A program made the position numbers and the translations under genes. A stretch of DNA of 64,000 nt, taken from assembly GCA_905182355.1 (NCBI GenBank), contig CAJJBH010000022.1, positions 1 to 64,000 on the forward strand, written 5' to 3'. Origin of the DNA: an uncultured Paracoccaceae bacterium. Lineage in GTDB: Bacteria; Pseudomonadota; Alphaproteobacteria; Rhodobacterales; Rhodobacteraceae. This document shows positions 46 to 46,220 of the stretch, piece after piece; the stretch's first letter is position 1; the number at the start of each line of letters is the position of its first letter. The notes below the pieces were generated by a model that did no database searches, was not told where the DNA came from, and saw only the letters and a program-made list of their open reading frames with translations.

Positions 46-387
46 ATGGAGCCTATGGAAAAAAGTAACAGAGCAAACCGGTTTTCGACCGAGGTCCGCG
101 CCCGCGCGGTTCGGATGATTTTTGAACACGAGCATGAGTATGCCAATCAATCGGCGGCGATCATGGCCATCGCGCCAAAAATCGGGTGTGGGAGGGACAC
201 GCTGCGGAGGTGGGTCAAACAGTCAGATATCGATAGCGGGCGCAAAGAGGGCCAAACCTCCGATGAGCGCGCCCAGATCAAGGCGATGGAGCGCGAGATC
301 CGAGAGCTTCGCCAGGCCAATGAGATATTGAGAAAAGCATCAGCGTATTTTGCACAGGCGGAGCTCGCCCGCCCATTCAAGCGATGA
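46..387 (+). CDS. IS3-family transposase OrfA (helix-turn-helix subunit)
   Basis: The 113-residue frame has the usual IS3 OrfA layout. An N-terminal helix-turn-helix (about residues 10-60, including RFSTEVRARAVRMIFEH and GCGRDTLRRWVKQ) should bind the terminal repeats. A short coiled coil follows (about 75-100, EREIRELRQANEILRKAS). Its stop overlaps the orfB start as ATGA, so the two are translationally coupled, or fused by a -1 shift on the AAAAG run near 334. A second ATG at 55 is an equally good start. OrfA looks intact, but its partner is broken, so at most it could act as a repressor of related copies. Confidence 0.75.
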   Translation: MEPMEKSNRANRFSTEVRARAVRMIFEHEHEYANQSAAIMAIAPKIGCGRDTLRRWVKQSDIDSGRKEGQTSDERAQIKAMEREIRELRQANEILRKASAYFAQAELARPFKR

Positions 388-1145
388 TCGCCTTCATCGA
401 AGATCATAGAGATGACTTGGGTGTCGAGCCGATTTGCAAGGTTTTGCCAATCGCCCAGTCCACATTCTATGCGCATGCTGCGATCCTCAAAAACCCAGAC
501 TTGGCGTCCGATCGTGCCAAACGGGACGCGGATCTGAGCCCCGAGATCAAACGTGTTTGGGAAGAGAACAATGAAGTCTACGGCACCCGAACGGTCTGGC
601 ATCAAATGCAGCATGAGACGTTCACTATTGTGCGCGGCACTGCGGATCGATTGATGAAACGCCAATCTATTCATGGTGTTATTCGAGGAAATGTAAAGAA
701 AACACCCGTGCCAGATAAAAGCCCGCCATGCCCAAAAGACAAGGTAAGCCGCAAGTTTCGAGCCCCCGCACCAAACATGCTTTGGGGGAATGATTTCACT
801 TACGTCGCGACGTGGCAGGGCGTCGTGTATGTGACTTTTATCGTCGATACCTTCGCGGACAAGATCGTTGGGTCGCGTATTTCGAGTTCACCCAAAACAG
901 ATTTTGTGTTAGATTGTTTTGAGCACGCGCGGCATGATCGCCGCCCAGTTCACAAAGGTGGCCTCAGTCATCACTCCGACCGAGGGGGCAATATTTGTCC
1001 ACTCGCTAAACCGAGCGGTTGGCCCTCGCGGGGATCGTGCCCTCGGTTGGCAGCGTCGGTGACTTTTACAATAACACCCCTCTCGGCAGTAAAAGCAGAA
1101 GAGAGGTGCGATGCACAATTCAATGCGTTAGATACGATCGCGTGA
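384..1145 (+). pseudogene. IS3-family transposase OrfB (DDE integrase), frameshifted
   Basis: The frame starts like a normal OrfB (IEDHRDDLGVEPICKVLPIAQSTFYAHAA). It keeps the first catalytic Asp (WGNDFTYVATWQG, near 785-825) and the second (HHSDRG, near 972-987). Just after that the homologous reading moves to another frame: TERLALAGIVPSVGSVGD is readable around 1012-1065 behind a stop codon, and a KAE-like stretch returns near 1090. The Asn/Glu region and the C-terminal third are missing or scrambled. The family joins DNA through a DDE active site; this copy lacks the final Glu context and should be inactive. Confidence 0.8.
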
Positions 1146-16283: not shown

Positions 16284-17708
16284 CTATTGGTTTAGAACAG
16301 CCGATACAGGCGCAAGGCTGACCCGTGATGCGCGATCCTGCAAACCCCAAATAAGCAGCGCAGATATCGTGTCAGACCGCAAACGCCCCAGCATAATAAC
16401 GCCTTCTTCTTGCCCTGCTCGAAATGCAGCTTGGTCCAAGAATCGGCGAATAACAGTTGGGGTTTGGTCCGCACTGTCGAAATCACGAAACACTGTCGCT
16501 GTGGGTACACCTTCACGCGCCGCCAATTTTGCAACCGTGTTTAGGCCTTTGGGCTGCGTGACAAAACCATGTCCCGACGCCAATAATATCTGTGTGGCCT
16601 GATCTGAAGCTTCGCGTGCCTCTTGCATGCCGTTGCCCACACCTTCCATAACACCAACAACTTCAGTCATTTGGCTGAGTATCGAGTTTAGGCCAACTTC
16701 GGCATCGACGGCCGTCGCGCCACTTGGCAGATCAATCATGGCCAAGACTTCAAACCCCTCGGCACGATATTTTTTCATCCGCTTAACTGCGTCCGGTAGG
16801 CTTGCATCTACCGCAAATGTGATCGGCGCTGGAAAGCTGCGAAGTGCAGGTAAACCAACCGCGGCACCATCAAGGTCGACGCCCGCATCAATCAGGATGA
16901 TCGCCATCAGCGGCATATCACCTGGATCGTCAAACGGCACAGCAAATGCCTTTAACGGTGGCTGTACATTACCATTTGACTGCGTATCTGCATCATTGGC
17001 TTGAAATGTATCACCGCGATCAACCAACGATCCTGCAGGGCGGCCAATCCGTGGTCGCAAATCTTCTTCTGCATCTTCTACCGATTGCGGAAACGCGGCT
17101 TCTTCTTCATCAACGACTGGTGCTTGTGGTTGTTCTGGCTCAACAAATTGCGCGGTCTCCGTATCTAGAGGAGCGTCTTCAACAGCATCAACTTTGGGCG
17201 CAACTTCTGTCTCAACAGGTGTTTCTTCAAACGCTGTTTCTTCTTGAGGTACTTCAGGGGATGAAGGCTGCGACGGATCCGTCGAAATAGAAAGTTCGGT
17301 ATCCCTTTCAGGGGCCATTGGCACAGCGGCTTGTGGGTTTTGCAAAACAGGGGCTTCGCTTTCAACCGCAACAGAGCCATTTGCGGCGGAAACCGCAGGT
17401 GTTTCAAGGCTTGTCGTACCGCCTGTTTGCGGCTCTTGTGACAAGTCTGATCCTGCCTGCGCAACTGAATTCACATCATCAGGCACTGGTTGGGACACAC
17501 CACTCGCGCCGTCTTGAACAAGATCAGCGTCACCCGCACCGGCATCCACACCAGTTTGGCTTGGGTCAACATCGCTCGAAACGCTTAAGGGTGCTGCGTC
17601 AGAAACATTGGGCGCTCTTGGGCCTTCAGTCATCACGGATGCCACACCTGCCACGCCCACCGACACAACAGTGCCCAACATTGCCCCGCTCAAGAAACCT
17701 CGTGCCAT
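16284..17708 (-). CDS. yibQ: Divergent polysaccharide deacetylase family protein (YibQ-like)
   Basis: The 474-residue product starts with a hydrophobic anchor or signal (MARGFLSGAMLGTVVSVGVAGVASV). A long acidic, Pro/Glu/Gln-rich linker follows (about 30-235), then a C-terminal divergent polysaccharide deacetylase domain (about 245-470): MPLMAIILIDAGVDLDGAAV, PITFAVDASLPDAVKRMKKYRAEGFEVLAMIDLP, then GFVTQPKG. It should be an envelope protein of unknown substrate. It sits antisense between trpE and trpG, an arrangement I recall from Rhodobacter sphaeroides. An inverted repeat AGGGGT/ACCCCT beyond its 3' end (near 16226-16256) may end transcription. Confidence 0.85.
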   Translation of the reverse strand: MARGFLSGAMLGTVVSVGVAGVASVMTEGPRAPNVSDAAPLSVSSDVDPSQTGVDAGAGDADLVQDGASGVSQPVPDDVNSVAQAGSDLSQEPQTGGTTSLETPAVSAANGSVAVESEAPVLQNPQAAVPMAPERDTELSISTDPSQPSSPEVPQEETAFEETPVETEVAPKVDAVEDAPLDTETAQFVEPEQPQAPVVDEEEAAFPQSVEDAEEDLRPRIGRPAGSLVDRGDTFQANDADTQSNGNVQPPLKAFAVPFDDPGDMPLMAIILIDAGVDLDGAAVGLPALRSFPAPITFAVDASLPDAVKRMKKYRAEGFEVLAMIDLPSGATAVDAEVGLNSILSQMTEVVGVMEGVGNGMQEAREASDQATQILLASGHGFVTQPKGLNTVAKLAAREGVPTATVFRDFDSADQTPTVIRRFLDQAAFRAGQEEGVIMLGRLRSDTISALLIWGLQDRASRVSLAPVSAVLNQ

Positions 17709-42611: not shown

Positions 42612-42746
42612 GTTAGGTCACAAAAGCTGACCTGTATAGTTATTTTTACATTTGATCCAAAAAAGGTGAATAGACTGTATCAGTCAACTCAAAACAAACT
42701 ATAATGGGTCCAAATATAAATTGTGCTGTTAGCTGGAAGTAGACAG

Positions 42747-43652
42747 ATGGATTGGGACAAACTTAGAATATTTCACTCAGTCGCTGATGCTGGCAGCCTA
42801 ACACATGCGGGTGACAAGCTGAACCTGTCGCAATCCGCAGTCAGCCGTCAGGTCCGCGCACTTGAAGAAGCCTTGGACGCAACCCTGTTTCACCGCCACG
42901 CCCGTGGGTTGATTTTGACAGAACAAGGGGAGCTGCTGTTTGACGCGACCACTGCCATGTCCAAACGCCTTGAAGCTGCCGCGGCCCGTATCCGTGACAG
43001 CGAAGAAGAAGTGTTTGGCGATCTGCGTGTGACAACCACAACAGGGTTTGGCACGTTATGGCTGGCCCCGCGCCTGCCCAAACTTTACGAAAAATACCCC
43101 GATTTGAAGGTCGATTTGATGCTCGAAGAGCGCGTGCTTGATTTGCCCATGCGTGAAGCCGACGTTGCCATCCGCATGAAAGAACCATCCCAAGCAGACC
43201 TAATCCGCAAACGCCTAATGAGCGTGCGGATGCGGGCCTATGCGACCAAAAGTTACCTCAAAGACAATCCGGTCCCCCTGCAGCTTGAAGATATGAAGGA
43301 CCACCGCCTGATTTGTCAGAACACAGATTCTGCGCAAGTTGGGGCAAGCGTCAGCCTTGTTAAAGAACTGATGACCTATGACGTGAAATCAACACTGACG
43401 GTCAACAACTACTTTGGGGTGCTTCAGGGCGTGCTGAACAATCTGGGAATCGGTATCCTTCCAGACTACGTAATTCAAGATTTTCCCGACCTTGTGCGCG
43501 TACTACCAGAGGTCGAATCGGCAGAAGTGCCCGTTTTTTTGGCCTATCCAGAGGAATTGCGGCACTCCAAGCGCATTTCTGCCTTCCGCGACTTTGTGCA
43601 AGATGAAATTATTTCATACCGCAAGGCATTGAGAAATAAAGAAATTACCTAG
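42747..43652 (+). CDS. LysR-family transcriptional regulator
   Basis: The start at ATG 42747 has GGAAG upstream and gives 301 residues. The N-terminal winged helix is WDKLRIFHSVADAGSLTHAGDKLNLSQSAVSRQVRALEE (about 3-42). The C-terminal periplasmic-binding-like effector domain (about 90-290) includes LRVTTTTGFGTLWLAPRLPKL. It lies divergent from the oxidoreductase gene, the usual arrangement of a LysR regulator and its target. The effector is unknown. Confidence 0.88.
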   Translation: MDWDKLRIFHSVADAGSLTHAGDKLNLSQSAVSRQVRALEEALDATLFHRHARGLILTEQGELLFDATTAMSKRLEAAAARIRDSEEEVFGDLRVTTTTGFGTLWLAPRLPKLYEKYPDLKVDLMLEERVLDLPMREADVAIRMKEPSQADLIRKRLMSVRMRAYATKSYLKDNPVPLQLEDMKDHRLICQNTDSAQVGASVSLVKELMTYDVKSTLTVNNYFGVLQGVLNNLGIGILPDYVIQDFPDLVRVLPEVESAEVPVFLAYPEELRHSKRISAFRDFVQDEIISYRKALRNKEIT

Positions 43653-43702
43653 CTATGCACAAGACGCATAGCGGGTAATCCGCCCCTGAGGCACATTGCA
43701 CA

Positions 43703-43731
43703 TTGAATGGGCACTCCGTGAACCCTAAATG
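43703..43731 (+). promoter_or_regulatory. Promoter-like hexamers ahead of the candidate small RNA
   Basis: TTGAAT at 43703-43708 is followed after 17 bases by TAAATG at 43726-43731. Transcription would start near 43738, exactly where the predicted RNA stem begins. The -10 match is weak. Confidence 0.35.
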
Positions 43732-43737
43732 AAGTTG

Positions 43738-43818
43738 TGAAGGCGGCGGGTACATTCGTGTGCCCCACCTTCACCTCCCTGTTGGACTTGGCCGAGCTTC
43801 GTGCTCGGCCTTTTTTTT
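43738..43818 (+). ncRNA. Candidate structured small RNA with its own terminator
   Basis: Three elements form a neat transcript of about 80 bases. A two-part stem pairs TGAAGG (43738-43743) with CCTTCA (43768-43773) and GGGTACA (43748-43754) with TGTGCCC (43759-43765), the latter capped by TTCG. An unpaired stretch with CCTCCC follows at 43774-43779. A perfect 8-bp stem GGCCGAGC/GCTCGGCC (43790-43810) then runs into eight T. No gene ends here: the LysR stop is 85 bases upstream and the MscS gene starts 129 bases downstream. A CCUCC stretch could pair with ribosome-binding sites of target mRNAs. I do not recognise a named family. Confidence 0.55.
43790..43818 (+). terminator. Strong Rho-independent terminator
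   Basis: GGCCGAGC and GCTCGGCC form a perfect 8-bp stem around TTCGT, followed by TTTTTTTT. It ends the candidate small RNA and would also stop read-through from the LysR gene. Confidence 0.9.
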
Positions 43819-43946
43819 GCCGGAATGACTTCCCCTATCCCTTCTTTTCGAACGGCGTCTGTGCACTTTGTCCCTTGATCAAACGACGGAAACACGGTCA
43901 GTTTACGTTTAGTTCAAGACACAGATTAATCAGGGACGGTTCGACA

Positions 43947-46220
43947 ATGCATTTCATCAAAATTTTGGTGCTCACCGCACTGCTTGCCTTCGGCCTATCT
44001 GCCCCCGCTAACGCCCAATCATTATTTTCGACCAGTTCGGCCCCTGCCGACACCACGGTCACGCTCCCCGATCCTTTGACAGAAGAGGCCGCAAACGCGC
44101 TGATCTCGCGGCTGTCGGACAACGAAGTACGCGCCCTGCTGCTGGATCAGTTGAACGCCCAGACGGTTGAAGTGGACGAAAGCGCAGGGCTAACCGAATT
44201 CTTTTATCACGCCACAACAGGTGCTGCGAGCCAAGTCGGATTGTCCATTAAAAGCTTACCGATATTCTTCGAAAAGCAACCCCAGGCCTTCGCAACCTTT
44301 TACGGCAAAATCGGCTTTGACGGCCTGTTAAAACTACTGGGCTACATGATCATCATGTTTGGCGGTGCTATCATAGCCGAGCTCATTTTCCGCCGCTTGA
44401 TTATGAAATGGCAAATCCAGCCCCCCGCCGATTTCAACAATATCACCCTGCGCGAAACCATTGTTTTCCTAACACAACGCTTGGCGCGTGAAATTCTTGC
44501 TGTGGTCGTGTTTATCTTAGTGGCGATGAACATCGGCATGGCGATCATGCCCCCCTTCTTGGGCAGCGTTGTTGGGCTGATCGGGCCATATCTGATCGCT
44601 TTCCCACGGTTAATGCTCGCAATTGGACGTTTTCTATTCGCGCCAAACAACCACTATTTCCGGCTCCTCAATGTGGATGATAGAACCGCCAAAGCAGCCG
44701 TCTTCCACAACTTTGGCATTGCGTTTTTAATTGGATTTTCATTCGTTCTTCTTCAATTCAACGGATTTAATGGACTGCCACGCGGGGAAACACGCATTGG
44801 GTTTTGGCTAAATTTAGCGGTTCACGTCTATCTTGCTGTCATCGTCTGGAAATACCGAGGGGAAATGAGCGCGATGATGCGGGGCTTTGATCCTGACGTC
44901 ACACCAGCCGAGGATCGTATGGCGCGGGCCTTTCCATATTTCGCGATCTGCGTCTCTTTGGGGATCTGGTGGATCACCCAAATCATTGTGAGCTACGGCA
45001 ACTTTGCCCTGCTGGATGGAGCACCGCATTACAAAACCATGGCACTGCTGTGGTTTGCACCCGCAATGGACACCTTGATCCGTGGTTTGGTACGTCACCT
45101 GACACCTGGCATGACTGGCGAAGGGCCAGTGGCTGAACGCGCATACCGCTCTGCCAAACGCTCCTACATCCGCATTGGACGTGTTGTGGTCTTTGGCATT
45201 GTCATCATGATGATCGCCAGCTTCTGGGGCATGTCACCAAACAATATCGCTTCAGCAGGCGTCGGACCACAATTGGCCGCCAAATTGATGGAATTCCTCG
45301 TCATTATAGCAATTGGCTACCTGATCTATGAAATGGTGTCGCTTTATATCAACCGTAAACTTGCCGCTGAACTGACCGCTGCAGGCTATATGCCTGATGA
45401 GGAAGCTGTTGGCGGCGACGGTGGCGGTGCGGGCGGTTCCCGTCTGTCCACAGTCCTGCCTTTGATCCTAATGGTGTCACAGGCCACGATCGTCATCGTG
45501 TTCTTGCTGCTTGGACTTGGCAACATCGGTGTCGACACCACGCCCCTACTGGCTGGTGCTGGTATCGCGGGCTTGGCCATTGGTTTTGGCGCACAAAAGC
45601 TGGTCACAGATGTTGTATCCGGCATCTTCTTCCTGATCGACGACGCCTTTCGCGTGGGCGAATACGTCGAGGTCGAAGGGACGATGGGCACGGTCGAGAA
45701 AATCTCGATCCGGTCCATGCAATTGCGCCACCACAAGGGGCCAGTGCACACGCTGCCTTACGGCGAAATCCCGAAAATCACCAACTTTTCACGCGATTGG
45801 GTGATTATGAAACTGCGCTTTACCGTGCCGTTTGATACGGACCCGAACAAAGTTAAAAAGATCTTTAAGAAGATCGGCCAAGACATGTTGGTGATGGATG
45901 AATTCAAGGACGACTTCCTACAGCCCTTCAAATCCCAAGGCATGCTTGAAATCGACGATGTAGGCATGGTGTTCCGCGGCAAGTTCATGGCCAAACCGGG
46001 CACACAGTTCACCATCCGCAAGGAAATCTTTAACCGTGTGAACGCTGCATTTGCCGAAAACGGGTTGGAATTTGCGCGCCGCGAAGTGCGTGTGGCCTTG
46101 CCCTCGATGGGTGACAGGGAACTCACGAACGACGACAAAACCGCAATCGCTGCCGCGGCTACACAAGCAGCCCAAGCACAGCTTGCAGAAGGGGCTGCGG
46201 GTCAGAAAGACGATCGCTAA
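43947..46220 (+). CDS. MscS-family mechanosensitive ion channel, large form
   Basis: The start ATG 43947 begins a signal peptide (MHFIKILVLTALLAFGLSAPANA), giving 757 residues; an in-frame ATG at 43737 would run through the terminator and is rejected. A periplasmic N-terminal region is followed by about ten membrane helices. The MscS core has the pore helix TPLLAGAGIAGLAIGFGAQKLVTDVVSG (about 527-554) and the beta domain (RVGEYVEVEGTMGTVEKISIRSMQLR). It should gate solute release on hypo-osmotic shock. It stands alone on the plus strand. Confidence 0.9.
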   Translation: MHFIKILVLTALLAFGLSAPANAQSLFSTSSAPADTTVTLPDPLTEEAANALISRLSDNEVRALLLDQLNAQTVEVDESAGLTEFFYHATTGAASQVGLSIKSLPIFFEKQPQAFATFYGKIGFDGLLKLLGYMIIMFGGAIIAELIFRRLIMKWQIQPPADFNNITLRETIVFLTQRLAREILAVVVFILVAMNIGMAIMPPFLGSVVGLIGPYLIAFPRLMLAIGRFLFAPNNHYFRLLNVDDRTAKAAVFHNFGIAFLIGFSFVLLQFNGFNGLPRGETRIGFWLNLAVHVYLAVIVWKYRGEMSAMMRGFDPDVTPAEDRMARAFPYFAICVSLGIWWITQIIVSYGNFALLDGAPHYKTMALLWFAPAMDTLIRGLVRHLTPGMTGEGPVAERAYRSAKRSYIRIGRVVVFGIVIMMIASFWGMSPNNIASAGVGPQLAAKLMEFLVIIAIGYLIYEMVSLYINRKLAAELTAAGYMPDEEAVGGDGGGAGGSRLSTVLPLILMVSQATIVIVFLLLGLGNIGVDTTPLLAGAGIAGLAIGFGAQKLVTDVVSGIFFLIDDAFRVGEYVEVEGTMGTVEKISIRSMQLRHHKGPVHTLPYGEIPKITNFSRDWVIMKLRFTVPFDTDPNKVKKIFKKIGQDMLVMDEFKDDFLQPFKSQGMLEIDDVGMVFRGKFMAKPGTQFTIRKEIFNRVNAAFAENGLEFARREVRVALPSMGDRELTNDDKTAIAAAATQAAQAQLAEGAAGQKDDR

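What the first reader, a model, noticed from the sequence alone, without database searches (positions are those of the whole stretch)
43703..43818. Candidate new small RNA between a LysR gene and mscS
A plausible promoter, a transcript start that coincides with a nested stem capped by TTCG, an unpaired CCTCCC stretch and a textbook terminator together make a self-contained RNA gene of about 80 bases. CCUCC-type stretches are known to target ribosome-binding sites in alphaproteobacterial sRNAs, but I do not recognise this fold.
Basis: partly seen in the sequence, partly recalled or inferred. Interest (0 to 1): 0.65.

Follow-up and report, generated by a model that had tools for sequence, protein, structure and literature searches.

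The report
SorY stress RNA beside LsrB-like regulator
The proposed "new" small RNA is real, but it is this marine bacterium's copy of SorY, a stress-response RNA already known from Rhodobacter; what looks new is that the LysR gene beside it is a relative of the rhizobial regulator LsrB/VtlR, and that a conserved DNA site in front of SorY suggests this regulator controls it.

Summary
At 43737-43817 (+) lies an ~81-nt RNA gene: promoter, 5' stem capped by TTCG, single-stranded CUCCCUGUUGGAC and intrinsic terminator. The fold is better than every shuffle (z -4.3), and 90 related sequences show strong covariation.

It is not new. It passes Rfam's SorX model and matches SorY end to end below that model's very strict cut-off. 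Synteny decides: the R. sphaeroides SorY gene lies directly after the orthologous LysR gene, as here, while the true SorX sits elsewhere in this genome after an OmpR gene. So this is the SorY orthologue. It probably acts by pairing CCUCCCUGUUGGAC with ribosome-binding sites, as predicted for R. sphaeroides takP.

The unexpected part is upstream. The LysR protein is the reciprocal best hit of Agrobacterium LsrB/VtlR. A dyad, ATGC-N7-GCAT, follows the LysR stop codon in 87 of 103 Rhodobacteraceae loci, at fixed distance from an RpoH-type promoter. The only other perfect copy found in this genome precedes a DUF1127 gene followed by CcsR-like RNAs. In Brucella and Agrobacterium, VtlR activates an AbcR sRNA and DUF1127-type genes. 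I infer that the LsrB/VtlR circuit also operates in Rhodobacteraceae, with SorY as its sRNA. This is untested.

The parts
42723..43652 (+). LysR-type regulator, LsrB/VtlR orthologue (the true start may be later, near 42747)
   Evidence: Pfam HTH_1 and LysR_substrate. Best PDB hit is 9hh1, 236 bits, next 100 bits; PMC11975290 refers to 9HH1 in its work on A. tumefaciens LsrB. Reciprocal best hit in own genome, 236 vs 123 bits.
43653..43671 (+). Operator-like dyad CTATGC-N7-GCATAG (extended T-N11-A LysR box) just after the LysR stop codon, centre about -75
   Evidence: Core ATGC-N7-GCAT in 87 of 103 orthologous loci against 0.1% in shuffles. One of only two perfect copies found in the held genome assembly.
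43702..43730 (+). RpoH-type promoter ATTGAA-N16-CCTAAAT
   Evidence: Conserved CTTGAtcg...CcTA in the alignment of 103 loci. Closely matches the S. meliloti RpoH1 consensus CTTGAA-N16-CCTATAT (PMC8844928). SorY of R. sphaeroides is under RpoHI/RpoHII (PMC8307010).
43737..43817 (+). SorY sRNA orthologue, about 81 nt (start inferred from the published R. sphaeroides SorY 5' end)
   Evidence: Rfam SorY 43740-43818, full length 1-83, 49.2 bits; SorX 54.7 bits. Synteny with R. sphaeroides SorY.
43737..43774 (+). 5' nested stem-loop with TTCG loop (43755-43758)
   Evidence: MFE structure; changes on both sides in all 14 pairs of its two main helices among relatives.
43774..43787 (+). CCUCCCUGUUGGAC single-stranded seed / anti-Shine-Dalgarno stretch
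   Evidence: Near-invariant in 76 orthologues. Predicted to pair with the R. sphaeroides takP ribosome-binding site at -22.8 kcal/mol.
43790..43818 (+). Intrinsic terminator (8-pair stem, T8)
   Evidence: one stem pair changes from AU to GC on both sides in 18 sequences.

Best explanation
The element is the SorY orthologue of this Rhodobacteraceae bacterium: an independently transcribed sRNA of about 81 nt made from an RpoH-type stress promoter. Its 5' stem presents a constant single-stranded CUCCCUGUUGGAC seed that pairs with ribosome-binding sites of mRNAs, probably with Hfq, and silences them. In R. sphaeroides the target is takP, so less C4-dicarboxylate enters during oxidative stress. Shown here: orthology by synteny and structure, promoter conservation, stem covariation, and a strong predicted seed pairing with the R. 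sphaeroides takP RBS. From the literature: RpoHI/HII control, own promoter, Hfq binding, takP as target, all in R. sphaeroides. Inferred: the same role in this organism, and added control by the adjacent LsrB/VtlR-type LysR protein through the conserved ATGC-N7-GCAT dyad.
For: Rfam: SorX 54.7 bits over cut-off; SorY full length, E 6e-9. The genome whose SorY hit lies at 1,632,645 (115 bits) matches the published SorY 5' end 1,632,642 (PMC6238624), and its flank has the same LysR (76% identity) and the same divergent oxidoreductase gene as the window. The canonical SorX is elsewhere in this genome, after an OmpR gene. 370 of 394 family genomes have a match to the SorY model; some of these may be SorX-type copies. 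Covariation. RpoH-like promoter conserved. takP RBS pairing -22.8 kcal/mol, stronger than all 33 window start regions used as background.
Against: The Rfam SorY gathering score (111) is not met (49.2), though only one of 394 family genomes meets it. The takP-like gene found here is only 38% identical to R. sphaeroides TakP and its predicted pairing is ordinary (-13.2; 45% of window start regions do as well), so conservation of that target is not supported. No expression data exist for this organism.
Confidence: 0.93

Rival explanations
1. [quoted passage not shown]
For: Passes the Rfam SorX cut-off; no intrinsic terminator was reported between the LysR stop and the sRNA in the scanned stretch, so read-through is possible.
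Against: The SorX locus after an OmpR gene is present separately at C7 with a higher SorX score of 69.3 bits. The copy here has its own conserved RpoH-type promoter and SorY synteny. R. sphaeroides SorY has its own promoter (PMC6238624).
Confidence: 0.05
2. It is a genuinely new sRNA family that shares only the anti-SD seed and terminator with SorX/SorY.
For: The 5' stem sequence differs strongly from R. sphaeroides SorY; the Rfam SorY cut-off is not met.
Against: Same neighbours, same promoter layout, same architecture, full-length model match, and intermediate sequences across the family.
Confidence: 0.02
3. The conserved stretch after the LysR gene is only the LysR transcription terminator.
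For: A strong intrinsic terminator lies 3' of the LysR gene.
Against: The conserved promoter, covarying 5' stem and near-invariant seed lie between the LysR stop and the terminator, and the R. sphaeroides orthologue is an expressed regulator (PMC8307010).
Confidence: 0.01

Closest known systems
SorY (Rfam RF02651), Rhodobacter sphaeroides
   Same: Position right after the orthologous LysR gene, own promoter, 5' stem, CCUCCCUGUUGGAC seed, terminator, length about 80 nt.
   Different: 5' stem sequence has diverged (the stem is kept by compensatory change); downstream gene is mscS here, purL-like there; the takP target is not clearly retained.
SorX (Rfam RF02784)
   Same: Same seed and terminator type; passes the Rfam cut-off.
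   Different: SorX lies in the 3' UTR of an OmpR gene and is cut out by RNase E; that copy exists separately in this genome.
AbcR1/AbcR2 (alpha-r15, RF02345) with LsrB/VtlR in Rhizobiales
   Same: sRNA gene next to the LsrB/VtlR gene; GCAT-containing LysR box upstream; RpoH-type promoter (as in abcR2); anti-SD regulation of transporter mRNAs; DUF1127 genes as co-regulated targets.
   Different: No sequence homology of the RNA was shown here; anti-SD motifs differ (CUCCUCCC and UUCCCCUC); the box lies about one helical turn further upstream in SorY promoters.
alpha-R8 family: MmgR, Caulobacter SisA-D (RF00519)
   Same: Anti-SD core of the same kind and a terminator; LysR-linked RNAs outside Rhodobacteraceae resemble this family below its cut-off.
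   Different: Window RNA scores 24.1 bits, below the cut-off of 41; single alpha-R8 copies usually sit by an N-formylglutamate amidohydrolase gene (PMC12559287).

Membership tests
SorY | Gene directly downstream, same strand, of the LysR gene that flanks SorY in R. sphaeroides | tested here: met
SorY | Full-length match to the Rfam SorY model | tested here: met
   1-83 of 83, E 6e-9
SorY | Rfam gathering score of 111 bits | tested here: not met
   49.2 bits; 1 of 394 family genomes reaches it, so the cut-off excludes nearly all orthologues
SorY | Own RpoH-type promoter | tested here: met
   sequence conservation only; activity not measured
SorY | Silences takP mRNA | tested here: inconclusive
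   strong predicted pairing in R. sphaeroides, ordinary pairing for the takP-like gene here
SorY | Induced by singlet oxygen / peroxide and bound by Hfq | not testable with these tools
   known for R. sphaeroides (PMC8307010)
SorX | Rfam gathering score of 46.6 bits | tested here: met
   54.7 bits
SorX | Encoded in the 3' UTR of an OmpR-type gene | tested here: not met
   upstream gene is LysR; the OmpR-linked copy is at C7
LsrB/VtlR (the LysR protein) | Reciprocal best hit with A. tumefaciens LsrB | tested here: met
   236 vs 123 bits here, 250 vs 125 in R. sphaeroides
LsrB/VtlR (the LysR protein) | Adjacent regulatory sRNA and GCAT-type box | tested here: met
LsrB/VtlR (the LysR protein) | Redox cysteines C144 and C273 | tested here: not met
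   V and A at the aligned positions; the only Cys is C198
LsrB/VtlR (the LysR protein) | Gene next to trxB (as in Rhizobiales) | tested here: not met
   upstream neighbour is a divergent oxidoreductase
alpha-R8 / MmgR (RF00519) | Rfam gathering score of 41 bits | tested here: not met
   24.1 bits
AbcR / alpha-r15 (RF02345) | Match to the Rfam ar15 model | tested here: inconclusive
   no hit in own genome, but the model rang nowhere in 96 class genomes or the controls

The most novel reading that the evidence does not exclude
SorY is the sRNA arm of an LsrB/VtlR circuit that is shared across Alphaproteobacteria. The LysR protein beside SorY binds ATGC-N7-GCAT dyads and controls, together with RpoH sigma factors, both SorY and the DUF1127 (ccaF1)-CcsR operon in Rhodobacteraceae, as VtlR controls AbcR and DUF1127-type genes in Brucella and Agrobacterium. 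This contradicts the published view that LsrB is unique to Rhizobiales.
Probability: 0.75. Interest if true: 0.65.

Novelty: new member of a known kind. Interest (0 to 1): 0.45.

Why it matters
The sRNA itself is known. What matters is the link. SorY and CcaF1-CcsR are well studied photo-oxidative stress sRNA loci of Rhodobacter, and in the papers searched their transcription is explained by RpoE/RpoHI/RpoHII. A conserved dyad in front of both, and the adjacent LsrB/VtlR orthologue, point to a further regulator shared with Brucella, Agrobacterium and Sinorhizobium. That would join two separate literatures and can be tested with one gene deletion and one gel shift in R. sphaeroides. It also shows that Rfam labels SorY orthologues as SorX, because the SorY cut-off admits almost only R. 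sphaeroides.

Tried and rejected
(1) Accepting the Rfam label SorX: rejected after finding the OmpR-linked copy elsewhere and the R. sphaeroides SorY synteny. (2) Showing sequence homology with AbcR (RF02345): the model rang nowhere in the 96 class genomes, so only synteny and circuit similarity are claimed. (3) takP as a conserved target: not supported for the takP-like gene here. (4) A plain multiple alignment misaligned the 5' stem arms, so structure was judged on a gap-free near-relative set and on a model-fitted set (fitted alignments lean towards the structure, but with partners slid the value falls to 28-47% paired). (5) A first motif-selected logo was circular and was replaced by an alignment without motif selection. 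(7) The original SorY and SorX papers are not held, so details come from later papers.

Full report
OBSERVATION. The fold is 4.3 standard deviations better than dinucleotide shuffles. The terminator alone would not be unusual; the evidence that matters is comparative.

IDENTITY. Rfam finds SorX over its cut-off (54.7 vs 46.6 bits) and SorY full length under its cut-off (49.2 vs 111). A second SorX hit in the same genome (C7, 69.3 bits) begins directly after an OmpR-type gene, which is where R. sphaeroides SorX lies (3' UTR of OmpR-type RSP_0847; PMC6238624). So the window copy is not the SorX orthologue. In 394 family genomes only one SorY hit passes 111 bits: G078 C4:1632645, a 7-contig genome, within 3 nt of the published SorY 5' end 1,632,642 of R. 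sphaeroides. I infer that G078 is R. sphaeroides 2.4.1; the full-length match of one of its TRAP binding proteins to PDB chain 2hzk (365 of 365 residues, 848 bits; TakP from my own knowledge) fits. Its flank carries the same LysR gene (76% identity) directly upstream and the same divergent oxidoreductase gene beyond it. Most LysR-linked loci from the family share this order; the downstream gene varies (mscS here, purL-like there). The window RNA is therefore the SorY orthologue.

STRUCTURE. In seven near relatives, aligned without gaps, three stem pairs show changes on both sides. Over 90 distinct sequences aligned to a model built from those seven, 18 of 23 pairs have changes on both sides, 253 double-changed cells against 79 in shuffles, 88% of cells paired; with partners slid the value falls to 28-47%. 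The alignment is fitted to the structure, so the figures lean that way, but the margin is large. Every one of 125 orthologues folds a stem beside the seed, mean z -3.2. The seed CUCCCUGUUGGAC is near-invariant. The stem changes freely in sequence while the seed does not, which fits a stem that shields or presents a pairing region.

HOW IT WORKS. From the literature: in R. sphaeroides SorY is transcribed from its own promoter under RpoHI/RpoHII, interacts with Hfq, and acts on takP mRNA, reducing flux into the TCA cycle (PMC6238624, PMC8307010, PMC7074977). Here: the R. sphaeroides takP ribosome-binding site (CGUCCACAAGGGAGGA) pairs with the seed at -22.8 kcal/mol, better than 33 background start regions. 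In the window organism a takP-like gene (38% identity) shows only ordinary pairing (-13.2), whereas another TRAP binding-protein gene, L218, pairs at -20.5. Anti-Shine-Dalgarno silencing of transporter mRNAs is the likely mode; the particular targets here are open.

THE LYSR GENE. The LysR protein's best solved relative is 9hh1 (236 bits; the next is 100 bits), and the paper on A. tumefaciens LsrB refers to 9HH1 (PMC11975290). LsrB letters from that alignment return this LysR as best hit in the own genome (236 vs 123 bits) and the SorY-adjacent LysR in R. sphaeroides (250 vs 125). Over the class, 152 of 289 sampled genomes have one gene of this kind at E below 1e-70. PMC11975290 states that LsrB is unique to Rhizobiales; these reciprocal hits disagree. 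The redox cysteines C144 and C273 of LsrB are V and A here, so thiol sensing by that pair is not conserved.

THE OPERATOR. I aligned the stretch from LysR stop to sRNA without choosing motifs. It shows two conserved blocks: a dyad AGctATGC-N7-GCATAgCgG just after the stop, and the promoter CTTGAtcg...CcTA. The core ATGC-N7-GCAT is present in 87 of 103 loci against 0.1% of shuffles, and GCAT lies 36-37 nt before the -35 TTG in nearly all. Outside the family, LysR orthologues followed by an RNA with the CCUCCCUGU core mostly carry the dyad too: 22 of 47 loci have it and 28 of 47 have the RNA core; by reading the list, about 19 of those 28 have both. The published LsrB/VtlR box is GCAT-N3-TG-N3-T, at -61 to -49 of the S. 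meliloti abcR1 promoter (PMC8844928). In SorY promoters it reads mostly GCAT-N3-GG-N3-T and starts near -71, about one helical turn further up.

THE SECOND SITE. A perfect CTATGC-N7-GCATAG occurs at only two places in the held assembly (87% complete): before SorY and at C80:16803. The second is upstream of a 74-aa DUF1127 protein followed by CcsR-like CCUCC motifs. Among 28 DUF1127 genes examined in eight Rhodobacteraceae genomes, 15 have the dyad within 650 nt upstream, 13 of them at closely similar distances, and 17 dyads in all were counted in those loci. This includes the R. sphaeroides DUF1127 gene followed by many CCUCCUCCC motifs, which I take to be ccaF1-CcsR1-4 (L230). Where a promoter is recognisable in that group, TTG lies 26-27 nt after GCAT, the spacing expected for a box at -61. 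In Brucella, VtlR activates AbcR2 and three DUF1127 proteins (PMC12595884); in Agrobacterium it activates abcR1 and the homologous atu1667 (PMC7486931). The parallel is close. No paper found mentions SorY together with VtlR or AbcR1. The library holds open papers only, so absence there is weak evidence.

LIMITS. Control of SorY by this LysR is an inference from conserved sequence and from homology; direction (activation or repression) and signal are unknown. Sequence homology between SorY and AbcR was not shown. LysR-linked RNAs outside the family resemble SorX, SorY and alpha-R8 models below cut-off, so a common origin is possible but not established. No expression data were available.

VERDICT. 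A real RNA gene, a member of an already known family (SorY), and an unexpected but testable regulatory link.

Noticed in passing
G000 C80:16803-16821 and about 16950-17400 (L221:1501-2080): A 74-aa DUF1127 gene with a perfect LysR-type dyad upstream, followed by an array of CCUCC motifs resembling CcsR1 (36 bits, below cut-off): a ccaF1-CcsR-like operon.
   Followed up: yes
L087 (G012 C9:60606-60858): Two SorY-like RNAs in tandem after the same LysR gene, the second with weaker similarity: a local duplication like abcR1/abcR2.
   Followed up: no
class loci L145-L172, downstream of LysR: RNAs with ACGUCUCCCAGACGUGAAGCCUCCCUGUU and terminators after LsrB-type genes in several families; only sub-threshold hits to SorX, SorY and MmgR models, so apparently not covered by Rfam at its cut-offs.
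   Followed up: partly
Rfam RF02651 (SorY) and RF02784 (SorX), seen at window 43740-43818: SorY's cut-off (111 bits) admits one of 394 family genomes, so SorY orthologues such as the window one are labelled SorX.
   Followed up: yes
window 342-457 (+): Rfam ALIL pseudoknot (101 bits), a frameshift signal of the kind found in IS3-type insertion sequences.
   Followed up: no
window 43907-43977: The mscS start region downstream pairs with the SorY seed at -17.4 kcal/mol, among the stronger of 33 start regions in the window; possibly chance.
   Followed up: no
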